Below the pieces are notes generated by a model. The model did not search any database, was not told the DNA's origin, and saw only the letters and a list, made by a program, of their open reading frames with translations. Source: Coriobacteriales bacterium OH1046 (GTDB taxonomy: Bacteria; Actinomycetota; Coriobacteriia; Coriobacteriales; Atopobiaceae). From it: a stretch of DNA of 64,000 bases. This document shows, one piece after another, positions 39,235 to 51,863 of this stretch (its first letter is position 1; every line of letters begins with the position of its first letter). Made by a program: the position numbers and the translations under genes. The stretch is taken from NCBI GenBank assembly GCA_004010535.1, contig RQYE01000005.1, positions 62,001-126,000 of the forward strand, written 5' to 3'.

Positions 39235-39912
39235 CTAGACCTTGAAGAGGTAGCCCACGCCCCGGATAGTGACGATATGGGAGGCCACTTGGGGGCCGAC
39301 CTTGGAACGCACGCGGCGGATATGCACGTCGACCGTGCGGGTGCCGCCGCAGTACTCGAAGCCCCAGACGCGGTGGAGCAGCGTCTCGCGCGAATAGGCG
39401 CGGCCGGGATGCGTGGCCAGAAAGGAGAGCAGCGAGTATTCCATGAGGGTGAGGTCCACCGGCTTGTCATCGATGCTCACCTGATAGGTGGCCAAGCTGA
39501 TGGTCATGTTGTCGATGGTGACGATATCGTCGGGAGCGCTCTCCTCGCCCGGCCAGAGCAGAAGCGAGCAGCGCACCTCGAACTCGGCCTCGCCGGCGGT
39601 CGAGAGGATGAAATCGTTGCGGCCCTGCATGGGCATGTGGAGCGACGAGAGCTTGTCGGGATCGACCACGGCGAGCATGGGGATGAGGCCGTTCTCGGCG
39701 ACGAACGCATCGACCGCGTTGAGCGTTGCCTGCGGAAGGCCCTCGGCATCGAGGATGACGAGGTCGAACTCATGTCCCGAGTTCAGGGCCTGGGGAAGCG
39801 TATCGTGCGTGGCAAGCGCGATGGACACATCGATCGCATGCCCGAGTGCGCGCATGCGATCGTGGAGACGCGCGGTGCTCGAGACGAGCAGTATTGTCTT
39901 GTGATGCGCCAT
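39235..39912 (-). CDS. Orphan OmpR-family response regulator with degenerate receiver
   Basis: A 225-aa protein. The C-terminal winged helix (about 125-225) is standard OmpR/PhoB type: LTLMEYSLLSFLATHPGRAYSRE then TVDVHIRRVRSK and IRGVGYLF. The N-terminal receiver keeps the phospho-acceptor-like Asp in DLVILDAEG but has SS where the acidic Mg2+ pair should follow ILLV, and the conserved Lys of the K-P motif is missing. No sensor kinase is adjacent. It is therefore probably controlled other than by normal phosphorylation. AAAGGA precedes the ATG. Confidence 0.87.
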   Translation of the reverse strand: MAHHKTILLVSSTARLHDRMRALGHAIDVSIALATHDTLPQALNSGHEFDLVILDAEGLPQATLNAVDAFVAENGLIPMLAVVDPDKLSSLHMPMQGRNDFILSTAGEAEFEVRCSLLLWPGEESAPDDIVTIDNMTISLATYQVSIDDKPVDLTLMEYSLLSFLATHPGRAYSRETLLHRVWGFEYCGGTRTVDVHIRRVRSKVGPQVASHIVTIRGVGYLFKV

Positions 39913-40091
39913 GCTGGTCCTTTATGTTTCCAAACGATGAAATGATAGTTCACATTACCACAAAAAGAAGTCGATTAGGTACCTGCACATATCCACGCCA
40001 CACTTTTCCGGATGCAGGCCGGGAGAAGGGTCGGACGGGCAGCCCGGCGGGTATGCGGGCTTCGCGCGGTTCTCCCGCACCTCCGGGGCAT

Positions 40092-40958
40092 CTACTCGAT
40101 GCTGCCCAGAAACTCCGCCGTCCTCTGGTTCTCGGGATGGTCGAAGACCTTCTCGGGCCTGCCCTGCTCCACCACCACGCCATCCTCCATGAAGACCACC
40201 CGATCGGCCACGTCGCGGGCGAAACCCATCTCGTGGGTGACGATGATCATGGTCATGCCCGAGTTCTCGGCGAGATCGCGCATGACATCGAGGACGCCGC
40301 GCACGAGCTCGGGATCGAGTGCCGAGGTGGGTTCATCGAACAGGATCACGTTGGGATGCATGGCAACCGCGCGGGCGATGGCGACGCGCTGCTGCTGGCC
40401 GCCCGAGAGCGCTGCGGGCTTGTAGTCGGCGCGGTCGAGCAATCCGACGGCCTCGAGCTGGATAAGCGCCTCCTTCTCGGCCTCCCCCTTGCTCTTGCCG
40501 AGCACCTTGGTCTGGCCGATCATGACGTTCTCCTTGGCCGTGAGGTGCGGGAAGAGGTTGAAGCTCTGGAACACCATGCCCACGTCGCGGCGGAGCTTGT
40601 TGACGTCGGTCGCGCCCTTGCCCGTGATCTCCTCGTCCTCGATGAGGATATGGCCCGCCGTGGGGATCTCGAGCAGGTTGATGCAGCGCAGCATCGTTGA
40701 CTTGCCCGAACCCGAGGGGCCGAGCACCACGACGACCTCGCCGGGCCACACGTTGAGGTTGACATCGCGCAGCACCTGCGTGGTGCCGTCGAAGGTCTTG
40801 TTGAGATGCTCGATGCGCACGATGGGATGCTCGCCCTCCACGAAGTGATGGCTCGTGAGATCCCGATCGGCCGCGAAGGCGCCGCGTGCCGCCTCCTCGG
40901 CACCGAGCGGCGGCGGAACGACGGGAAGCTCGAGCTTGGCTTTACGCTTACCGACCAT
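40092..40958 (-). CDS. glnQ: Polar amino acid ABC transporter ATP-binding protein (GlnQ type)
   Basis: A 288-aa ATPase. Walker A is GPSGSGKST, the signature is LSGGQQQR, Walker B is [12 protein letters not shown] and the switch His is in VTHEMGF. It resembles GlnQ/HisP over residues 45-285, with an N-terminal extension of about 40 residues. The ATG at 40958 has AAAGGGGGG upstream and overlaps the permease stop by 11 bases, so the longer frame is not used. Transporter order is binding protein, permease, ATPase. Confidence 0.92.
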
Positions 40959-42399
40959 GGCCATCCCCCCTTTGCATAGACGCTGCGGGCATCGCGGGGA
41001 CAAAGGGCGCGAGCAGGCCCCCCGGCAACGAATGCTCCCCGTCGGCCCCCTCGAAGTGCGAGCTTCCCGCAATCTCGAGGGAGGGTCCGCCACCCGCATG
41101 CGCCTGCGATGCCTTGGCCTTGGCGCCGGGCCTCGTGCCCTGGCCGCGCTCGGAGCGGGCGAGGTTCTTCTCGATGATGCCGACCACCTTGATGAGCGGC
41201 AGCGTCACGACGAGGTAGAACAGGGCGGCGGTCACATACGGCGTGATATTGCCCGAGACGGAGGTGGCGTTCTTGGCGAACATCATGAGCTCCATGACGC
41301 CCACGCTGGAGAGCAGCGAGGTGTCCTTGTAGCTGGTGATGAAGTCGCTCGTGACCGTGGGGATGACGCGGCGGACGGTCTGCGGCAGGATGATGGTGAA
41401 CATGGTCTGGATGCGGTTCATGCCCAGGCTCGCCGCAGCCTCGTACTGGCCCTGCGGGATGGACTGGATACCCGCGCGGAAGATCTCGGCCAGATACGCC
41501 GATGAGTTGATGGCCATGACCGCCACGCCGAGCACGTTGTTGTCGATGACGATGCCGAGCATGGGCAGGCCGAAGAACATGATATAGATCTGCAGGAAGA
41601 GCGGTGTGCCGCGCAGGATGTTGATGTAGACCACCGAGATGGCGCGCAAAAGCGGGTTATGGGAGATCTTCATGAGGGCGAAGAGCAGCCCCAGCGCGAT
41701 GGCGAAGGGGTAGGCCGCGAGCACGATGGCAAGGCACACGAGCCATCCCGGGAAGAGCGAGAAGAGCGATGTGAGCATGAGCTGAGGCTTGAAGAACATG
41801 CCGAGGAACTGGTTGGAATTCCATGCTTGGACGGCGGGGCTGGCATCGAGTGCGGCCACGGCCTGCTGGAGCCAGGTGTTGGCGATGACCGCGATGGGCT
41901 CCGAGGCTTCGAGCTCGACGGTCGCACCGGCAGCCGTGGCATAGCTGCCCGTGACGGAGACGGCCCCGCCCTCGGATGGCAGATGCGTGTCCTCGAGCTC
42001 GAGGCGCAGGAGCGATCCCGCTGGGATGGGCTCGGAGAAGGCCACGGTGATGGAATCGCCCTCCGCAGAGGCGGATGCCACGCCGATGGGCACGCGGTCG
42101 AGGCCGTCGAGCACGGTGACCTTCACGGATGCATCCTCGAAGGTGCCGTCTCCGGGGAGCGTGAGGGTGACCGAGACGACCTGCTCGCCTGCATCGACCG
42201 TGCCCTCCCACGTGAGGCGCGTAGGCAGGCCGCCTATGACGTTGTGCCCGCCATCCTCGTTGGGACGCGCGGTTGCCTTATTGGTCGTGAGCGCCAGCGC
42301 AGGGGGCGCGATGAGGAGCGAGACGAGCAGCGCGCACGCCAAGACGAGCGCACGAAGCGCCCGTCCTTGGCCTGCTGCATGTTTTCCTGAGACCGGCAT
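40948..42399 (-). CDS. Amino acid ABC permease with an N-terminal extracellular domain
   Basis: A 483-aa protein. It starts with a signal-type hydrophobic segment (about residues 10-38). About 150 residues of predicted beta-rich extracellular sequence follow (for example [19 protein letters not shown] and [15 protein letters not shown]). A permease domain with five helices then extends from about 210 to 430. The permease part has the cytoplasmic EAA loop [19 protein letters not shown]. Ordinary GlnP/HisM permeases are 220-250 aa; the front domain is not a substrate-binding protein and has no family name that I can give. A linker and Gly/Ser-rich tail end the protein. Confidence 0.85.
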
Positions 42400-42422
42400 G
42401 CGATCCTCTTCCGCGAGCACTC

Positions 42423-43259
42423 CTAGATGGAGTCGCCGAACCACTTCTGCTTGAGCTCATCCATGGTGCCATCGGCCTCCATATCGGCGAGGACCTGATT
42501 GATGGCCGCAGTGAGGCCGGGGTTGTCCTTCGAGACGACGATGGCGTACTGCTCGCCCGTGGGGATCTCGATCGAGACCTCGCAGTCGGTGAAGGAGACC
42601 GTGCACTGGTGGCCGATGACGGGCAGGTCGGCGACGACGGCGTCGTAGAGGCCCGAGGCGAGGCCGGCCATGGCCTCGGTCACGGTGGTCAGCGGCACGA
42701 TCTCGGCATTGGGGAGGTTCTCGCGGGCCCACGCCTCGCCGGTGGTGCCGGCTTGGACGGCGATCTTCTTATCGGCGGAGTTCAGGGCATCCTCGGTTGC
42801 GGCCTCGGCACCCTTCTTGACGGCAACGCCCAGGTTGGAATCGAGGTAGGGGTCGGTGAAGTCGACTTCCTTCTTGCGATCCTCGGTGATGGAGAAGGCG
42901 GAATTGCCGATATCGGCCTTGCCGCCCTGGGCGATCATCGGAACGATCGAATCGAAGTTCTGGGGCGGCAGGTAGACGACCTCGAGGCCCAAGCGCTTGC
43001 CGATCTCGTTGGAGAGATCGACGTCGAAACCGGAGGGCACGCCGTCCTCGAACGAGTCGAGGGGCGGGAAGTCGAGATCCGAGGCCACGATGAGCTGGCC
43101 CTCCTGGACGAGGGTGTATGAGGCTTCGGTCTCGGTTCCGGCATCTCCAGAACCGTCGCTGCCCGGCCCCGCATCGGTGCCGGACCCGGAGTTGCAGCCC
43201 GCGAGAGCGAGCACGGCAGCGAGGGCAAGGCCCATAAGCGCATGCGTTTGCTTCTTCAT
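42423..43259 (-). CDS. Polar amino acid ABC transporter substrate-binding lipoprotein
   Basis: A 278-aa lipoprotein; lipobox LALAGCNSG places the lipidated Cys at about residue 22, after a typical signal. The mature part is a type-II periplasmic-binding fold with SDLDFPPLDSFEDGVPSGFDVD, the amino acid-binding consensus start. It belongs with the downstream permease (24-base gap) and ATPase. Substrate likely a polar amino acid such as glutamine; not further definable. The start at 43259 has GAAGGAA upstream. Confidence 0.92.
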   Translation of the reverse strand: MKKQTHALMGLALAAVLALAGCNSGSGTDAGPGSDGSGDAGTETEASYTLVQEGQLIVASDLDFPPLDSFEDGVPSGFDVDLSNEIGKRLGLEVVYLPPQNFDSIVPMIAQGGKADIGNSAFSITEDRKKEVDFTDPYLDSNLGVAVKKGAEAATEDALNSADKKIAVQAGTTGEAWARENLPNAEIVPLTTVTEAMAGLASGLYDAVVADLPVIGHQCTVSFTDCEVSIEIPTGEQYAIVVSKDNPGLTAAINQVLADMEADGTMDELKQKWFGDSI

Positions 43260-43436: not shown

Positions 43437-43515
43437 GCGTGACAAGGGGACAGGTCATTTGTCACGCCATGCCCCCAATGACAGGCGTGACAAATGACCT
43501 GTCCCCTTGTCACGC
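43437..43515. repeat. 32-bp perfect inverted repeat of the GTGACA family
   Basis: 43437-43468 (starting GCGTGACAAGGGGACAGGTC) is the exact reverse complement of 43484-43515, with a 15-nt loop. A half copy (TGTCCCCTTGTCA) follows at about 43525. A second, slightly diverged element is at 46122-46190. It sits in the 484-bp gap between the binding-protein gene and the glutamine synthetase homologue, together with the 147-bp element. These look like REP/RAYT- or MITE-type palindromes; no transposase is nearby. Confidence 0.85.
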
Positions 43516-43544
43516 TTGTCAATGTGTCCCCTTGTCAATGCATC

Positions 43545-43691
43545 TTCCCAGCACGGTCCCCGGCGACTGTACAGTCGCTAGAAGCCGTGCTGGGGAAACG
43601 TCGTTTTCCGACCCTTCCGGATGCTCTCCTCGGCGCGTTTGACCAGCGGCACCTCTAGTGACTGTACAGTCGCCGGGGACCGTGCTGGGAA
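43545..43691. repeat. 147-bp palindromic element, copy 1
   Basis: The ends are perfect 32-base reverse complements (43545-43576 and 43660-43691; core GACTGTACAGTC). The inner parts also pair imperfectly, so the whole stretch can fold as one long hairpin. Its reverse complement aligns without gaps to 51864-52010, which is also 147 bases. It lies just downstream of the glutamine synthetase homologue. The size, terminal inverted repeats and copy number fit a MITE-like or structured dispersed repeat. Confidence 0.85.
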
Positions 43692-43743
43692 GATGCCAGA
43701 GAAGGGAGGGCTACGGCACGGCAGGACCCGCGTCCAGGGAACC

Positions 43744-45087
43744 CTACACGCCGCCGTAGTAGCGCGTACGCTCCCAATCGGTGACCGAGGTGCAGAAATC
43801 CTCCCATTCGCGCGTCTTGGCATCGATCAGGAAGTCGAAGATATGATCGCCTAAGACCGTGCGCATGAGATCGCTCGCGGCGAAGCGCTCGATGGCCTCC
43901 CCCAACGTACGCGGCAGGCGGACGATGCCGCGCTCCTCGAGCTCGGCCACGGAGAGCAAACGCGTCTCGGCAGCAGATTCGGGGGGCATCGCGACGCCCT
44001 CCTCGATCCCCCTGAGCCCCGCAGCCAAGACGGCGGCGAGCGCCAGATAGGGATTGGCCGTGGGGTCGGGATTGCGCAACTCCACGCGGGTGGCGATATG
44101 CTTGCCGGGCTTGTGCGTGGGAATGCGGACGAGCGCGGAGCGATCCTTGCGACCCCAGGTGGCATAGATGGGCACGACGCCGGTCCGGTTGAAGCGCTTG
44201 TAGGAGTTGACCGTGGGATTCGTGATCAGCATGAACTCGGGCGCGTAGGCGAGCAGGCCGCCCACGAAGTGCTGGGCAAGCTCGGAGAGATGAGCCTCGT
44301 TGCTCTCCTTGGGTGCCCAGAAGAGGTTCTCGCCGTCGTGATCGAGCAGCGAGAGGTACAGGAACATGGCGGAACCCGGATGGTCGGCCAAGGGCTTGGG
44401 CATGAAGGAGGCGAACAGCCCGCGCTTGGCGGTCTGCTCGCGGATGATCAGGCGTGTGGCCATGATGTTGTCGGCGCAGCTCACAGCCTCGCTATAGCGC
44501 AGCTCGATAGCATTTTGGGATTGTGCGCTGGCGTGGAAGGAGTACTGCACGGGAATGCCGATCTTCTCGCACTCGCGCGAGATGGCGCGACGCAGATCGA
44601 GCGAGGAATCCGTCGGCGAGAAATCGAAGTAGCCGCAGCGGTCGAGCGGTTTGGGATCGAGGTCGTTGTCGAAGAAGAAGTACTCGATCTTGGGACCGAC
44701 GTTGAAGACATAACCCTGCTCGTCGGCCTTGGAGAAGGCCCGCTCGAGCACGCCGCGCGGATCGCCCTCGAAGGGCTCGCGGCTGGGCGTGCGGATATCG
44801 CAGAACACGCGCGCGACGGAGCTGTTCTCACCCTCTTTGCGGGACATGAGCTGGAAGGTGTTGGCATCGGGGAAAGCGAGCATATCCGATTCCTCGAGGC
44901 GAGCGAAGCCGTCGACGGCCGACCCATCGAAGCCGATGCCCTCCTCGAAGGCCTCCTCGAGCTCCTCGGGCGAGATGGAGAACGATTTGAGGTGCCCCAG
45001 CACATCGGTGAACAACAGCCGCACGAAGCGGATATCGCGCTCCTCGACGGTTTTAAGGACGAAATCGATGCTGCTCTCGCTGCTCAT
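43744..45087 (-). CDS. Glutamine synthetase homologue with most catalytic residues replaced
   Basis: A 447-aa protein of GS type I length and overall sequence. Intact parts include [35 protein letters not shown] and [16 protein letters not shown]. The active site is altered: the E-P-E metal motif reads GPKIEYFFF, the HHE-V-A-x-G-Q-H-E block reads [12 protein letters not shown], the NGSGMH block reads [11 protein letters not shown], and the flap Glu block reads [10 protein letters not shown]. In Salmonella numbering this replaces Glu129, Glu212, Glu220, His269 and Glu327, leaving Glu131 and Glu357. The frame is unbroken and the start has GGAGGGAG. Glutamine synthesis is unlikely; a regulatory or novel ligase role is possible. 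Confidence 0.85.
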
Positions 45088-45201
45088 GCAGACTCCCTCC
45101 GGGGCCGGCTGCCGATCTTTCCCCTCCCACGTTGCCACAAACGTGTTTCGGGTCCGTTTCACCATCTGCGAACGGTATCAACCACCACGCACGGAGCACC
45201 A

Positions 45202-46121: not shown

Positions 46122-46190
46122 CGTGACAGGGGGACGGGTCATTTGTCACGCTCGTAAAAGGCGTGACAAATGACCCGTCCCCCTGTCACG
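46122..46190. repeat. 30-bp perfect inverted repeat of the GTGACA family, second copy
   Basis: 46122-46151 (CGTGACAGGGGGACGGGTCA and on) is the exact reverse complement of 46161-46190, with the 9-nt loop TCGTAAAAG. It matches the element at 43437-43515 with compensating changes in both arms, such as GGGGACAGG to GGGGACGGG, which keeps the pairing. It ends 12 bases before the helicase stop. It may serve as the terminator of the helicase operon as well as being a dispersed repeat. Confidence 0.85.
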
Positions 46191-46202: not shown

Positions 46203-48443
46203 TCACCTCCACGAGAGTACCCGCCCGCGCATGCCCCCCATATCGAGCACGCCCCTGGCGAAGCCCTTGCGCACGAGCTCGGGTGGCAGGAACTCGTCGT
46301 ATTTGTCGAAAACCGGGATCTCGCCGGGATACACCAGCTCGATGGGATCGAACTCCTCTGCAGCGGCATCCGCGAGCGCCGCGAGGAACCCGTCGGCAGA
46401 CGCCTCCATCCTGAACTGGATGTAATACGGCCTGCATACATCCATGCCCTTGATTCCCAGCGCTGCGGGCAACCTGCGCTTGATCACGCGCTCCAGAGCG
46501 ATGAACGCGTAGGTGCCGAGCCACGGGAAGAGGGCCCAGGTGTCGCCGCCGAGGTTGATGAGCGGGGATGCGGTCGCACCGGCGGCACGGGCTGCACGAC
46601 GTGCGTGGACGAGACGTGCACGGGCGTTCTCCTGCAGATAGGGATAGGAGGCATCCTCCATGAGCACCTGGCGCATGCGCTCGAGGATGCGCGTGTCGAT
46701 GTCGCCGGGACACTCGCCGAAGTACGCTGGAACCTTGCCCTTGACCTGCGTGACGTAGACGAGCCTGCGCTTGTGGTCGACCTCCTCGACGATCCACACC
46801 GAGCCCGCGATGGCGAGCTTCTCGCCCACCGGCGGCGGCTGGACCACGGTGCCCAGCTCCTGGCTCTCGGAGCGCACGGTATACTCCTCGCTCTCGACGA
46901 ACACGCCGTAGAAGCGGAAGCTGTTGGTGATGCGCTCCCCTGCGAGCCCCACGATGAGGCCGCCCGTCTCGGTACGCTCGATGTGGTCGGCTTCGAGGAG
47001 GTGGCGCAGGAGCAGCCGGTAGTCATCCTCTCCGATGCGCGAGAAGGGCGAGAGCGAGAGCACCCGGCCCGCAAGCTGCGCGGGCGTGAGCTCGCCGCAT
47101 GAGGCGAGCGTCGCCATGGTCTGATGGTAGAGCAGGCTGTAGCGCAAACGCCGCGCATCGGGCGGCTCGACCCAGCGCTCCTCGAGGTAGAGCTGCACGA
47201 GCGAGATGCCCTGCAGGAGCTTCCAAGGAATGGCCTCGGGCATCGTCGCACGCGGCTCGGGCGGATCCTCGCGCATGACGAAGCGCATCTCGGACGGCTG
47301 GCCGCGCCGACCCGTGCGGCCCATGCGCTGCAGGAAGCTCGATACGGTGAACGGCGCGTCGATCTGGAACGCCCGCTCAAGGCGGCCGATATCGATGCCC
47401 AGCTCGAGCGTGGAGGTGGTGCAGGTGGTCAGCGCGACCTCCTCGTCGCGCATGAGCTCTTCCGCCGTCTCGCGGAAGCTCGACGAGAGGTTTCCGTGGT
47501 GGATGAGGAAGCGATTGGGCTCGCCCGTGTGCTCGCAATACGAGCGCAGCGTGGAGGTGACCGCCTCGCATTCCTCGCGCGAATTGGAGAAGACGAGGCA
47601 CTTGCGGCCCTGCGTATGCTCGTAGATGTAACCGATGCCCGGATCGGCGTTTGCGGGAGCCGCCCCGGCTTCCGGGGAGGGGGCGTTCTCCAACGCCGCA
47701 TCGTCGGCACGAGCACCCTGCTGCTCGGACGCCTGCGGGCCGTGAGTATAGAAATGCTCCATGGAGATGCGCCAGCGCTGGGCGGATTCCTTCACCCGGG
47801 GTACCGTGCAGCCCCTGCCCGACCCGTGGGAGAGGAGCCGCGCGGCGGCATCGGGATCGCCGATGGTGGCGGATAGCCCGATCCTGCGCGGACATACCCC
47901 CGCCCTGCGCGAGAGGCGCTCGATGAGGCAGAGCGTCTGGGCACCGCGGTCACCGCGCAGCAGCGCATGCACCTCGTCGATCACGACGAAGCGCAGGTCG
48001 CCGAAGAGCTGGGGGATGGCGGTGTGGCGATGGAGGAGCAGGGCCTCGAGCGACTCGGGTGTGATCTGCAGAATGCCGCTCGGATGCTCCATGAAGCGCG
48101 CCTTATGCGATGCGGCCACGTCGCCGTGCCAGTGCCACACGGGGATGCCGCCCTCCGCGCACAGGTCGGCCAAACGATAGAACTGGTCGTTGATGAGCGC
48201 TTTCAGGGGACCTACGTAGATGCATCCCGCCGATGCGGGAGGATCCTCCCACAGCTCGGTCAGGATGGGGAAGAAGGCCGCCTCGGTCTTACCCGATGCC
48301 GTGAAGGACGTGAGCAGGACGTTCTCATCGGTGTTGAAGATGGCGTCGGCTGCCGCCACCTGGATGGCGCGCAGCGACTCCCAATCGTGCGCATAGACGA
48401 AATCCTGCACGAACGGTGCGAACCTATCGAAGATCCCGGCCAT
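46203..48443 (-). CDS. Lhr/BrxH-like DEAD/DEAH-box helicase
   Basis: A 746-aa superfamily 2 helicase. Motif I is TSFTASGKTEAAFFP, motif II VVIDEVHALL, motif III GLSATIGD, motif VI LQRMGRTGRRG. The C-terminal 350 residues form the winged-helix/Lhr-core type region, ending without a zinc module. It is of the kind found with BREX ATPases. The start at 48443 is preceded by AAAGGG. It is the third gene of an operon after the TerB protein and the BrxD-like ATPase (75-base gap). The module probably acts on DNA, perhaps invading or damaged DNA; that is inference. Confidence 0.85.
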   Translation of the reverse strand: MAGIFDRFAPFVQDFVYAHDWESLRAIQVAAADAIFNTDENVLLTSFTASGKTEAAFFPILTELWEDPPASAGCIYVGPLKALINDQFYRLADLCAEGGIPVWHWHGDVAASHKARFMEHPSGILQITPESLEALLLHRHTAIPQLFGDLRFVVIDEVHALLRGDRGAQTLCLIERLSRRAGVCPRRIGLSATIGDPDAAARLLSHGSGRGCTVPRVKESAQRWRISMEHFYTHGPQASEQQGARADDAALENAPSPEAGAAPANADPGIGYIYEHTQGRKCLVFSNSREECEAVTSTLRSYCEHTGEPNRFLIHHGNLSSSFRETAEELMRDEEVALTTCTTSTLELGIDIGRLERAFQIDAPFTVSSFLQRMGRTGRRGQPSEMRFVMREDPPEPRATMPEAIPWKLLQGISLVQLYLEERWVEPPDARRLRYSLLYHQTMATLASCGELTPAQLAGRVLSLSPFSRIGEDDYRLLLRHLLEADHIERTETGGLIVGLAGERITNSFRFYGVFVESEEYTVRSESQELGTVVQPPPVGEKLAIAGSVWIVEEVDHKRRLVYVTQVKGKVPAYFGECPGDIDTRILERMRQVLMEDASYPYLQENARARLVHARRAARAAGATASPLINLGGDTWALFPWLGTYAFIALERVIKRRLPAALGIKGMDVCRPYYIQFRMEASADGFLAALADAAAEEFDPIELVYPGEIPVFDKYDEFLPPELVRKGFARGVLDMGGMRGRVLSWR

Positions 48444-48518
48444 GATGGCCCTTTCCCCCCACTGCCAGGATGCTCCCGAACGGCGGTGTGCTGCTCGGGA
48501 AGCATTCCTCATGAACCC

Positions 48519-49862
48519 TTAGATGGCAAACTCGGCGAAGCCCGCCTCTCCCTCGGCGGCATCGTCGGCTCCGCCTGGACCCGCCACGGCATGCACGAAC
48601 GAATCGGACCCGAGAAGCCCCTCCACCGTGAGTCCGGGCGCCTGGAGCATGATGTCGAGCATCTCGATGAAATCCCTGATGACCTCGCGCGGGGTGACGA
48701 GGGTATCGGCACCAACGCGTGAGAGCTCGAGCTCGAGGAAGGCGGCGAGGTCATCTTCGGTGAGGCCGCGCCCGTAGCCGAAGAGCCCGGCGTGGATATC
48801 GGCGAGCTTCTCGATGAGCACGAGCAGCTCCTCGGGCGTGAGCGGCGCGATCCTGATGACCGGGGCCATGAGGTCTGCCCTGCCCTCGCGGCCGAAGCGG
48901 CCTTGCGCGAGGCGCGAGCGCAGGGCCTCGTAGGAATAGAGGCCGCGTCGGCGGTCGTCCACGCACGGGGGCGTGCCGCTCATGATGATGCCCAGGTAGG
49001 AGGCCTTGCCCTGAAGGGTGTCGTTATACATGGCGAGGATCTTCTCGTAGTTGTACTGACGTGACACCGCATGGGGGATCTTGTAGAGGTTGACGAGCTC
49101 GTCGATGAGCACGATGAGCCCCTCGTAGCCGGCACCGCGCAGGAAACGGGCGAAGAGCTTGATGTAGTCGTACCAGTCGTCGTCGGTCACGATGATCGAG
49201 ATGCCCAGCTCGGCGCGGGCCTCGGCTTTGGTGCGGTACTCGCCGCGGAACCATTTGACCACGTTTCCCTTGATCTCGTCATCGCCGTCGAGATGGGCGC
49301 GAAAATACCGTGAGAGAAGCCGTGCGAAATCGAAGCCGTGGACCATCTCCTGCACCTCGGAGATGACGGCATGGATGCGCTGCTCGACAAGGCCGGCGAA
49401 GGCGGGATCGTCCGGCGCGGTGCCGGAGACCGCGACCTCCTGCTGTATGTTGGAGATCCAGCGGTCGAGGATGAGCGTGAGCGCACCGCCCTCGGGGCGG
49501 GTCTTGACGGAGAGATTTGAGACGAGCTCCCGATAGGTGGCCAAGCCCTGGCCCCTCGTACCCTGCAAACGGCGCTCGGGCGAGAGGTCGGCGTCTGCCA
49601 CCGCGAAGTTCCTGCCCATGGCGTGGTTTCTGATGGTCTGCAAAAGGAAGCTCTTGCCGCTGCCGTACTTGCCCACGACGAAACGGAACGATGCCCCGCC
49701 ATCGGCTGCGATCTCGAGGTCGCGGAGCAGGGCCGCCACCTCGGACTCGCGGCCCACGGCGATGTAGGGCAGTCCCATACGGGGTACGACACCGCCCTTG
49801 AGCGCGTTGATGAGCACCGTGGCGATACGCCTCGGAACCTTGGGGGCCGCTATCCCGTCCAT
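48519..49862 (-). CDS. BrxD-like ATP-binding protein (DUF2791 family)
   Basis: A 447-aa P-loop ATPase of the DUF2791/BrxD family. Walker A is VVGKYGSGKSFLL near residue 64, and Walker B is LIVLIDELVNLYKIP. It begins PRRIATVLINALKGGVVPR, the typical BrxD opening, and includes GIIMSGTPPCVDD after it. The ATG overlaps the TerB gene's stop (TGATG), so the pair is co-translated. In type 2 BREX, BrxD works beside a BrxH helicase; here no other BREX genes are present. Role presumably energy-dependent loading or remodelling on DNA with its two partners. Confidence 0.85.
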   Translation of the reverse strand: MDGIAAPKVPRRIATVLINALKGGVVPRMGLPYIAVGRESEVAALLRDLEIAADGGASFRFVVGKYGSGKSFLLQTIRNHAMGRNFAVADADLSPERRLQGTRGQGLATYRELVSNLSVKTRPEGGALTLILDRWISNIQQEVAVSGTAPDDPAFAGLVEQRIHAVISEVQEMVHGFDFARLLSRYFRAHLDGDDEIKGNVVKWFRGEYRTKAEARAELGISIIVTDDDWYDYIKLFARFLRGAGYEGLIVLIDELVNLYKIPHAVSRQYNYEKILAMYNDTLQGKASYLGIIMSGTPPCVDDRRRGLYSYEALRSRLAQGRFGREGRADLMAPVIRIAPLTPEELLVLIEKLADIHAGLFGYGRGLTEDDLAAFLELELSRVGADTLVTPREVIRDFIEMLDIMLQAPGLTVEGLLGSDSFVHAVAGPGGADDAAEGEAGFAEFAI

Positions 49863-51511
49863 CACGAAAGCGCCTTTCTCACGTCATCCGCATAGTCTTC
49901 GACCAGATGCGGATCCTCTCCCTCGAATTCGATGACGGTATCGCCTATGTGCTCGAAAAGCGCCTCGTTGATGCGATCGACCGCAAGCGAGGCCATCGCG
50001 CCGCGCCCGGGCAGGGCGGCTGCATCATACGTCCCCTCGAGCAGGCTCCTGAGCAATGACACGTCGCCCACCGAGAGCCCGAAGGGGCTCCCAACGCCGA
50101 TGGGTGCATCCGCATGAGGCTCCTTCGCGGGTGCGGTTTTGGGAGCCTGCGCAGGGAACCTGTCCGGCACCTCCTCGCGCTCCTCATCCACCAGCAGGGC
50201 CTCGCGCGTGTGGATCGCCGCCACGCGGATACCGAGGAGCGCCGAACGATCGATATGCACCTCGGCCGCCTCCTCGGCGGCCCTCCGATCGAGGCAGGCC
50301 GTAACCTCGTCCTCCACGATGCGCCGCACGTACGCGGGCAGCGCACGGGCCTTGAGCTCGGGAAGGCCGCCCAGTTCGACCCGCAGCATGCGGTCGATCT
50401 CATGGAGGATGTCGCCCAGCTCCGCGCTGGTCTCCGTAAGGCGATGGGGGCGGTACCTCGACCAGCGGCCCGAACGGCAGCGAAACCTCACGCCGCTCAT
50501 CAGCTCGACCACGCAGTCGGGATGCGGCACCGGATCATAGAAGATCGCCGAGCGGAACGGGGTGTAGGACGCGTCCACGGCATCGCCGAAGAGCCCATCG
50601 ACGAACCCGCGCTTACGGCGGCGCTTGCAATGATCGACCATACGCGCGAAGACCGCCGCACAGCATTCCCCGAGCTCGTCGAAATGCTCGGAGAACACCC
50701 GCGACCGCTCCATCCGATAACGCGATGCGGCTGCGAGCGCGCAGGCGAAGTCCCCGCGTTCGGGAAGGCCCGCACCCGTACACCGCCACTCGGCAGGCTC
50801 CGCTGTGGAGAGGAGCGCCCGCTCCGCGCCGGCGAGCACCGCCACCGCCCGGTCGAGCGGGGCGCCCTCGGCATCGCATCCGAGCGCTGCGCGATCGAGC
50901 CCGTGGTAGACCGCATAATCGGCCATCCATATGGAGAGATGGCCGATGAGGGCGCCGTTGCCCGGATCGGACCCATAGGTATCGCGCAGGAGCGCGAGGG
51001 CGCGCAGGCCCTCTTCGCGGTCTTCAACACCAACGCCGCAGAGCAGCTCGTAGGCATGCACGAACAGGAACGACAACGGGGCCCGAGGAGCTTCTCCGGC
51101 GCGATAGCGGGTTCTCCACGTGAAATAGCCTCTCAGCTGCGCGTCGGACATGTCCTCGTAGGTAGGGTAGTATCTCATGAATGCGCCTTCATACGGGCAG
51201 TCATCGGTGTAGCGTTCCATGAGACGGGCCTGATCGTAGAAGAGCTTGGGATCGGCATAGGAAACGGCCCAGCGGCTTCGATTGCGTGCGAGGCTGCGCA
51301 TCTGGACGATGGGTTCGGGCACCGGGCCTGCGATCGTAGGGGCGAGGTCGGGGAGGTTCTTGCCCAGCGATCGAAACACCGCGGTGCCGCGTGCGCCGAA
51401 GGCCTGCCGCCCGGTGCGGATGACGGGCTCGTCTCTATAGACGCCTCCCGAGAGCACGCGATTCCCGCGTGCGGCGTCGAGTATGAGCTCGACGACCTGC
51501 TCGGCCCTCAC
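49862..51511 (-). CDS. TerB-N/TerB-C domain protein
   Basis: A 549-aa protein. Residues about 15-165 match a TerB-N domain (KLFYDQARLMERYTDD, then YYPTYEDMSDAQLRGYFTWR and LSFLFVHAYELL). The last third resembles a TerB-C domain. TerB-N/C proteins were linked in genome-context studies to tellurite-type stress and phage defence systems. The GTG at 51511 has GGGGAGG eight bases upstream; ATG at 51544 is possible if the transcript is leaderless. It heads the operon with the BrxD-like ATPase and helicase. No enzyme motif is visible; a scaffold or sensor role is likely. Confidence 0.8.
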   Translation of the reverse strand: MRAEQVVELILDAARGNRVLSGGVYRDEPVIRTGRQAFGARGTAVFRSLGKNLPDLAPTIAGPVPEPIVQMRSLARNRSRWAVSYADPKLFYDQARLMERYTDDCPYEGAFMRYYPTYEDMSDAQLRGYFTWRTRYRAGEAPRAPLSFLFVHAYELLCGVGVEDREEGLRALALLRDTYGSDPGNGALIGHLSIWMADYAVYHGLDRAALGCDAEGAPLDRAVAVLAGAERALLSTAEPAEWRCTGAGLPERGDFACALAAASRYRMERSRVFSEHFDELGECCAAVFARMVDHCKRRRKRGFVDGLFGDAVDASYTPFRSAIFYDPVPHPDCVVELMSGVRFRCRSGRWSRYRPHRLTETSAELGDILHEIDRMLRVELGGLPELKARALPAYVRRIVEDEVTACLDRRAAEEAAEVHIDRSALLGIRVAAIHTREALLVDEEREEVPDRFPAQAPKTAPAKEPHADAPIGVGSPFGLSVGDVSLLRSLLEGTYDAAALPGRGAMASLAVDRINEALFEHIGDTVIEFEGEDPHLVEDYADDVRKALS

Positions 51512-51553
51512 CGTCCGCACCTCCCCGTCTTGGAATGAGTACATTTGTTCGTG

Positions 51554-51562
51554 AGTATAGCA
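51554..51562 (-). promoter_or_regulatory. Extended -10 promoter of the TerB-ATPase-helicase operon
   Basis: On the minus strand TGCTATACT is an extended -10 box at 51562-51554. Transcription would begin near 51547, either giving a short leader before the GTG at 51511 or an almost leaderless message from the ATG at 51544. No clear -35 box. Confidence 0.45.
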
Positions 51563-51863
51563 CGGGAACAGATGTTTGGTCCGCATTTTTCGGAAGATGC
51601 CTAATGCGGATGTGGGAGAGGCATCGGGTCGAGACAGCATTGCGCCGCCTGTGCAAGAAAGGGGGAACACAGGCGGCGCGGGTAAGGCCCGTACGCTCGG
51701 CAGGGAGAGGGTCTGCGAGCGTCGAGGCAGGAAACAACGTGCTTGAAGTTAGTTAAAGTTAACTTCTACTGATAGTATACCTATAATTCCTACGAAGGCA
51801 AGGGGTATTTTTAAAATGGTATCGTTGCGGTTTCCCGCCGCCTATTCGGAACCGTTGCGCATG

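What the first reader, a model, noticed from the sequence alone, without database searches (positions are those of the whole stretch)
43744..45087. Glutamine synthetase homologue with a dismantled active site
Direct reading shows five of the seven acid/histidine residues used for metal binding and catalysis replaced: the E-P-E motif reads P-K-I-E, both Glu of the HHE...GQHE block are Ala, the His of NGSGMH is Phe, and the flap Glu is Val. Yet the frame is intact, promoter and ribosome site are good, and structural blocks are conserved. This is selection for a fold without glutamine synthesis: a regulator, an amino-acid sensor, or a ligase with new chemistry.
Basis: partly seen in the sequence, partly recalled or inferred. 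Interest (0 to 1): 0.75.

Follow-up and report, generated by a model that had tools for sequence, protein, structure and literature searches.

The report
Dead glutamine synthetase beside nitrogen regulator GlnR
In two whole families of gut and mouth bacteria, a glutamine-making enzyme has lost the residues needed for its chemistry, yet it is still carefully preserved next to the master nitrogen-control gene, which suggests it has become a nitrogen-signalling protein.

Summary
The minus-strand ORF (45087..43744) is an intact type-I glutamine synthetase (GS) homologue lacking E129, E212, E220, H269 and flap E327 (Salmonella numbering). All 100 orthologues from Atopobiaceae and (by elimination) Coriobacteriaceae form one clade (support 0.999) that lost E212, E220 and H269 once; dN/dS is 0.03-0.17 and most pocket arginines are retained. 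The real GS there is type III (101/101 good family genomes).

Across class Coriobacteriia this GS, dead or alive, is normally followed by an OmpR-type orphan regulator whose best solved relatives are actinobacterial GlnR (window 39235-39912). They co-occur: 61/61 genomes with this GS have it, 0/17 near-complete genomes without it do. A GlnR-box-like motif (GnAAC-n6-GAAACA) learned only from GSIII promoters recurs upstream of the dead GS; in this 64-kb window the only two strong sites lie before the dead GS and before glnR. PII is missing from six of seven Atopobiaceae checked.

Best reading: a pseudo-GS kept as a signalling partner in a GlnR nitrogen circuit, analogous to but not the same as the Firmicute GS-GlnR(MerR) system. 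Physical interaction and ligand are untested.

The parts
43744..45087 (-). pseudo-glutamine synthetase (catalytically dead GSI-alpha homologue), 447 aa
45093..45100 (-). ribosome binding site GGAGGGAG, 5 nt before the ATG
   Evidence: read directly
45141..45160 (-). GlnR-box-like site GAAACGGACCCGAAACACGT, 73-54 nt before the start codon, 16.7 bits with a motif learned only from GSIII promoters
39235..39912 (-). GlnR-like orphan OmpR-type regulator (225 aa); conserved operon partner of the GS across the class
39922..39941 (-). second strong GlnR-box-like site (17.5 bits) directly before glnR; not conserved outside the genus
42423..43259 (-). amino-acid ABC transporter substrate-binding protein, inserted between GS and glnR in most Atopobiaceae
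40948..42444 (-). amino-acid ABC transporter permease with an extra N-terminal domain
40092..40964 (-). amino-acid ABC transporter ATPase (best NCBIfam model GlnQ, 307.6 bits, below the 379 cut-off)

Best explanation
The gene encodes a pseudoenzyme. An ancestral GSI-alpha (glnA) sat in an operon with the OmpR-type nitrogen regulator GlnR. After Coriobacteriales gained a type III GS, which took over glutamine synthesis, glnA in the common ancestor of Atopobiaceae and Coriobacteriaceae lost both metal sites. The protein was kept because of a second, regulatory job: most likely it binds a nitrogen-status ligand or anion in the surviving arginine-lined pocket and passes that state to GlnR, by direct contact or sequestration; GlnR then controls GSIII and the pseudo-GS promoter through GnAAC-n6-GAAACA boxes. 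Shown: loss of catalytic residues, its age, purifying selection, operon and co-occurrence with GlnR, shared promoter box. Inferred: that GlnR binds these boxes, that pseudo-GS contacts GlnR, and what ligand is sensed.
For: All metal-site losses shared by 100 sequences in one clade, support 0.999; dN/dS 0.03-0.17 and conservation equal to active homologues; pocket residues E135, R298, R316, E336, R338, D54, S56 kept in all or nearly all members; GSIII in 101/101 good family genomes; same-strand glnA-glnR neighbourhood across the class; regulator closest to solved GlnR; GS copy and GlnR co-occur 61/61 against 0/17, both kept even where unlinked (f6, G026); GlnR-box-like motif before both GSIII and pseudo-GS; no PII in six of seven Atopobiaceae tested. 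Precedent for GSI-alpha as nitrogen sensor: PMC9249791.
Against: No test of binding. Co-occurrence is partly explained by co-deletion of neighbours. In most Atopobiaceae a transporter separates the two genes. The arginine used for glutamine feedback in B. subtilis (R62, recalled) is not conserved: R63 is present in the window protein but only in 12/76 and 0/24 of the clade. The regulator lacks a long C-tail like the one GS binds in Firmicutes. Many Atopobiaceae boxes score below 12 bits (13 of 20).
Confidence: 0.5

Rival explanations
1. The protein regulates glutamine supply itself: it binds GSIII or the adjacent amino-acid transporter and tunes their activity; the link to GlnR is only shared transcriptional control.
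For: GSIII is present in 101/101 good family genomes and its promoter carries the same box; a glutamine/cystine-type transporter lies in the same cluster in most Atopobiaceae.
Against: The glnA-glnR association predates GSIII: other orders have the operon and no GSIII. G020 and G034 lack the pseudo-GS and keep GSIII. The transporter is not beside the gene in Coriobacteriaceae or Eggerthellaceae. GSIII and GSI are different oligomers (general knowledge).
Confidence: 0.15
2. A ligase or other enzyme with new chemistry: the pocket was rebuilt for a different substrate or for metal-independent catalysis (Lys in place of the n2 metal).
For: Phosphate- and carboxylate-binding arginines and E131/E357 equivalents are kept; E129->K is nearly uniform in Atopobiaceae and arose separately in one f3 genus, as if the Lys were useful; several GS relatives have altered substrates.
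Against: Both divalent metal sites needed for ATP-dependent ligation in all known GS relatives are lost; residues at 186 and 193 vary among small side chains (A/S/G/T and G/A/V/S/C), not expected of a new catalytic centre; E129 is still present in most Coriobacteriaceae, so no single new site is shared.
Confidence: 0.2
3. The gene still has some ordinary GS or regulatory activity contributed in mixed oligomers with an intact GSI.
For: GSI forms oligomers with active sites shared between subunits (general knowledge).
Against: No intact GSI exists in the window's genome and 1 match per genome is the rule in the family.
Confidence: 0.03
4. A decaying relic carried along because it precedes glnR.
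For: It has lost catalysis; in the window's genus the flap Glu is also lost and dN/dS is somewhat higher, 0.14-0.17.
Against: Open frames without internal stops in the matches listed; conservation equal to active homologues; kept where glnR is not downstream (f6, G026).
Confidence: 0.05

Closest known systems
Firmicute GS-GlnR/TnrA circuit (feedback-inhibited GSI-alpha plus MerR-type regulator; PMC9249791)
   Same: GSI-alpha fold (Z about 51 to these structures), operon of GS with a nitrogen regulator, GS proposed as sensor
   Different: The regulator is a non-homologous OmpR-type GlnR; the GS here cannot catalyse; the feedback arginine and a long regulator C-tail are missing; gene order is glnA-glnR
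Actinobacterial GlnR (orphan OmpR-type regulator; PMC10704036, PMC4977719)
   Same: Best solved relatives of the neighbouring regulator; no ordinary receiver-domain match; similar 5+6+5 binding box
   Different: Shorter (225 aa), PF21695 score just under threshold (25.2 against 27); here linked to a GS gene, a linkage not found described for actinobacterial GlnR in the papers searched
Type I glutamine synthetase GlnA of Eggerthellaceae and other Coriobacteriia orders
   Same: Orthologous gene, 50-54% identical, same operon and promoter box
   Different: Those keep all or nearly all metal ligands; the dead clade lacks E212, E220 and H269
Lengsin (vertebrate eye-lens pseudo-GS, PDB 2j9i)
   Same: GS fold that lost catalysis (recalled knowledge)
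   Different: Distant sequence (E 1.9e-4), eukaryotic, structural role, no regulator partner

Membership tests
Type I glutamine synthetase (GlnA) | GS beta-grasp and catalytic domains, GSI fold | tested here: met
   PF00120 334 bits, PF03951 86 bits; Z 51
Type I glutamine synthetase (GlnA) | two metal sites: E129, H269, E357 and E131, E212, E220 | tested here: not met
   E129K, H269F, E212A, E220A
Type I glutamine synthetase (GlnA) | NCBIfam TIGR00653 cut-off 429 bits | tested here: not met
   387.5 bits
Type I glutamine synthetase (GlnA) | glutamine synthesis activity | not testable with these tools
   needs purified protein
Gamma-glutamylputrescine synthetase | NCBIfam NF045547 cut-off 650 bits | tested here: not met
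   265.6 bits
Firmicute GS-GlnR circuit | MerR-type GlnR or TnrA partner | tested here: not met
   partner is OmpR-type
Firmicute GS-GlnR circuit | feedback-inhibition arginine (B. subtilis R62 equivalent) | tested here: not met
   present in the window protein but not conserved: 12/76 and 0/24 in the clade; role of R62 recalled
Firmicute GS-GlnR circuit | direct GS-regulator complex | not testable with these tools
   no multimer prediction or binding assay available
Actinobacterial GlnR (for the neighbour gene) | atypical GlnR receiver PF21695 | tested here: inconclusive
   25.2 bits against cut-off 27
Actinobacterial GlnR (for the neighbour gene) | closest solved relatives are GlnR | tested here: met
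   8hig 1.4e-32, 8hih 5.1e-30, next RegX3 2.5e-19; Foldseek rank 1 is 8hih
Actinobacterial GlnR (for the neighbour gene) | regulates GS genes through 5+6+5 boxes | tested here: inconclusive
   boxes found before GSIII and pseudo-GS; binding not tested

The most novel reading that the evidence does not exclude
A glutamine synthetase fold stripped of catalysis is the dedicated nitrogen sensor that controls an OmpR-type GlnR. That would imply that GS-to-GlnR signalling is the ancestral, so far unknown, activation route of actinobacterial GlnR, here isolated from the enzymatic role.
Probability: 0.33. Interest if true: 0.88.

Novelty: new variant of a known kind. Interest (0 to 1): 0.7.

Why it matters
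How actinobacterial GlnR senses nitrogen is described as unanswered (PMC4977719, PMC10704036). A lineage where the neighbouring GS kept its fold and pocket but lost its chemistry is a natural separation-of-function experiment. If the dead GS is needed for GlnR control, GS signalling to GlnR can be studied without the confounding loss of glutamine synthesis. It would also be an ancient, widely conserved bacterial GS pseudoenzyme in common gut genera, where automatic annotation as glutamine synthetase would mislead metabolic models.

Tried and rejected
1. Shifted alignment or frameshift restoring the residues: rejected.
2. Recent pseudogene: rejected by dN/dS, intact frames and age.
3. The ABC transporter as the conserved partner: it is not beside the gene in Coriobacteriaceae and Eggerthellaceae.
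4. GlnR box conserved before glnR itself: only in the window's genus.
5. Box before the transporter binding protein: best 5.4 bits.
6. Bacillus-type glutamine feedback arginine: not conserved.
7. A published description of GS pseudoenzymes in bacteria, or of GlnR in Coriobacteria: no fitting paper in the held library; subscription papers are not held.
9. Second GS copies in G002 and G003 (L008, L009) are distant (37% and 33% identity) and may be contamination or transfer; not pursued.

Full report
OBSERVATION. The ORF is on the minus strand, 45087 to 43744, 447 residues, uninterrupted. Pfam finds both GS domains (PF00120 334 bits, PF03951 86 bits). NCBIfam's type I GS model scores 387.5 bits, under its cut-off of 429. 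Direct alignment with solved GSI gives E129->K133, E212->A186, E220->A193, H269->F242 and flap E327->V304, while E131 (E135) and E357 (E336) stay. The AlphaFold2 model (mean pLDDT 85.6, pTM 0.90) superposes on GSI-alpha structures with Z 51, rmsd 1.9 over 416-425 residues.

HOW OLD AND HOW CONSTRAINED. Orthologues were found in 129 of 140 genomes of the same family (99 of 101 good ones), which named records show to be Atopobiaceae (Olsenella, Thermophilibacter, Tractidigestivibacter, Atopobium). Hence f2 is Eggerthellaceae, and f3 is Coriobacteriaceae by elimination and from memory of the Coriobacterium glomerans genome size. A FastTree tree of 178 sequences (midpoint-rooted) groups all 76 Atopobiaceae and 24 f3 sequences in one clade (support 0.999, stem 0.27). 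Every member lacks E212, E220 and H269. Sequences outside the clade (Eggerthellaceae, other Coriobacteriales, other orders) keep E212 and H269 throughout, and E220 in all but one. E129 is K in 66/76 Atopobiaceae and in one f3 genus (g51, three sequences). The flap Glu is kept in 66/76 Atopobiaceae but lost in the window's genus and in 22 of 24 f3 sequences. Pairwise dN/dS is 0.03-0.17, and mean column conservation equals that of the active set (0.760 against 0.761). Of 160 positions conserved in active homologues, 106 are retained at 95% or more and 20 are replaced. Kept in all or nearly all members are the equivalents of E131, H211, R321, R344, E357, R359, D50 and S53. So the metal sites went, but an arginine-rich pocket stayed.

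WHAT MAKES GLUTAMINE INSTEAD. The window's genome has one other GS, a GSIII with complete-looking blocks (L002: GPEQEYF, HNEVAPCQHE, NGSGKH). GSIII is in 101 of 101 good Atopobiaceae genomes and in all tested Coriobacteriales but one 90%-complete genome (G359), but in none of five genomes from other orders, which carry a canonical GSI and mostly a second copy. This supports gain of GSIII, then loss of GSI catalysis.

THE MISSED PARTNER. In Coriobacteriaceae, Eggerthellaceae, most genomes from other orders and some Atopobiaceae (L155, L156, L161) the next gene on the same strand is one OmpR-type regulator. In most Atopobiaceae, including the window, an amino-acid ABC transporter lies between them (window 40092-43259). 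The regulator (39235-39912) has as best solved relatives GlnR of Saccharopolyspora (8hig, E 1.4e-32) and M. tuberculosis (8hih, 5.1e-30), well ahead of RegX3 (2.5e-19). It hits Pfam GlnR_1st just under threshold and no ordinary receiver model, and the top Foldseek match of its predicted model is M. tuberculosis GlnR.

CO-OCCURRENCE. A profile of 18 such regulators (A1) separates orthologues (206-373 bits) from paralogues (at most 146 bits). All 61 tested genomes with this GS copy have the regulator. None of 17 genomes at least 90% complete that lack this copy have it: nine with no GSI match and eight with only a second-copy-like or weak match. The latter were classed from sequence for G163, G206 and G368 and from score alone for the others. 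Four genomes with GlnR but no GS are all under 90% complete. In family f6 and in G026 the two genes lie on different contigs and both are kept. Because they are usually adjacent, single deletions explain part of this.

PROMOTER EVIDENCE. A motif learned only from 40 GSIII upstream regions reads GnAA(C)-n6-GAAACA (log-likelihood 197 against 70 for shuffles). It resembles the published GlnR consensus t/gTAAC-n6-Gc/aAAC of M. smegmatis and related forms (PMC10704036). Applied to GS upstream regions, which are independent sequences, it gives scores of at least 12 bits in 7/20 Atopobiaceae (0.08 expected), 8/10 Coriobacteriaceae (0.10), 6/10 Eggerthellaceae (0.07) and 20/24 in other orders (0.22). 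Second GS copies have none (0/5). Over both strands of the whole 64-kb window only two sites reach 12 bits: 45141-45160 (16.7 bits) before the pseudo-GS and 39922-39941 (17.5 bits) directly before glnR. The latter is not conserved outside the genus.

MECHANISM. Shown: dead metal sites, age, constraint, GSIII replacement, operon and co-occurrence with GlnR, common promoter box. Inferred: pseudo-GS reports nitrogen state to GlnR, probably through ligand or anion binding in the retained pocket. The Firmicute precedent has feedback-inhibited GSI-alpha binding the C-tail of an unrelated GlnR inside the active-site cavity (PMC9249791). The details cannot be the same here: the regulator family differs, it has no long C-tail (it ends at GVGYLFKV), and the arginine used for glutamine feedback in B. 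subtilis (R62, recalled) is not conserved. PII is missing from six of seven Atopobiaceae tested; the one hit is in a 633-aa ORF of G002 contig C24, which also carries the divergent GS and may be foreign. Three of four Coriobacteriaceae and all three Eggerthellaceae tested have PII. So the pseudo-GS/GlnR pair could be the main nitrogen-sensing module of Atopobiaceae.

VERDICT. Observation confirmed; interpretation partly supported and sharpened. It is not a member of functional GlnA (metal ligands tested, not met). It works, most likely, like the Firmicute GS-GlnR circuit but is not that system. Searches of the held library found no description.

Noticed in passing
window 46203-51670 (-): A three-gene cassette next to gpmA matches SngA, SngB and SngC (Shango-type anti-phage defence; PADLOC E 7e-68, 9e-182, 2e-270). 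In the 20 Atopobiaceae loci compared it sits here only in the window's genus.
   Followed up: partly
window 43437-43515 and 46133-46179: Perfect 32-nt inverted repeats around GACAGGTCATTTGTCACGC, present at two places in the window (four matches, 0.01 expected), perhaps a small mobile or REP-like element.
   Followed up: partly
window 43540-43696: A long imperfect inverted repeat, arms of 61 nt, 87% complementary, 35-nt loop, just downstream of the pseudo-GS.
   Followed up: no
window 40948-42444 (-): The ABC permease carries an extra N-terminal secreted-like domain of about 200 aa (weak DUF2808 match) before the membrane part.
   Followed up: no
L201, L210, L213 (other Coriobacteriales): Independent partial decay of the GS active site outside the dead clade: E129 is A, T or K while E212, E220 and H269 stay.
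   Followed up: no
G363:C26:4293-5788: In family f6, where glnR is not beside the type I GS, glnR lies divergently next to the GSIII gene.
   Followed up: no
G002:C24 and G003:C5 (L008, L009): Divergent extra GSI homologues in two same-genus assemblies, one on a contig that also carries a GSIII and a PII-like match; possibly contamination.
   Followed up: no
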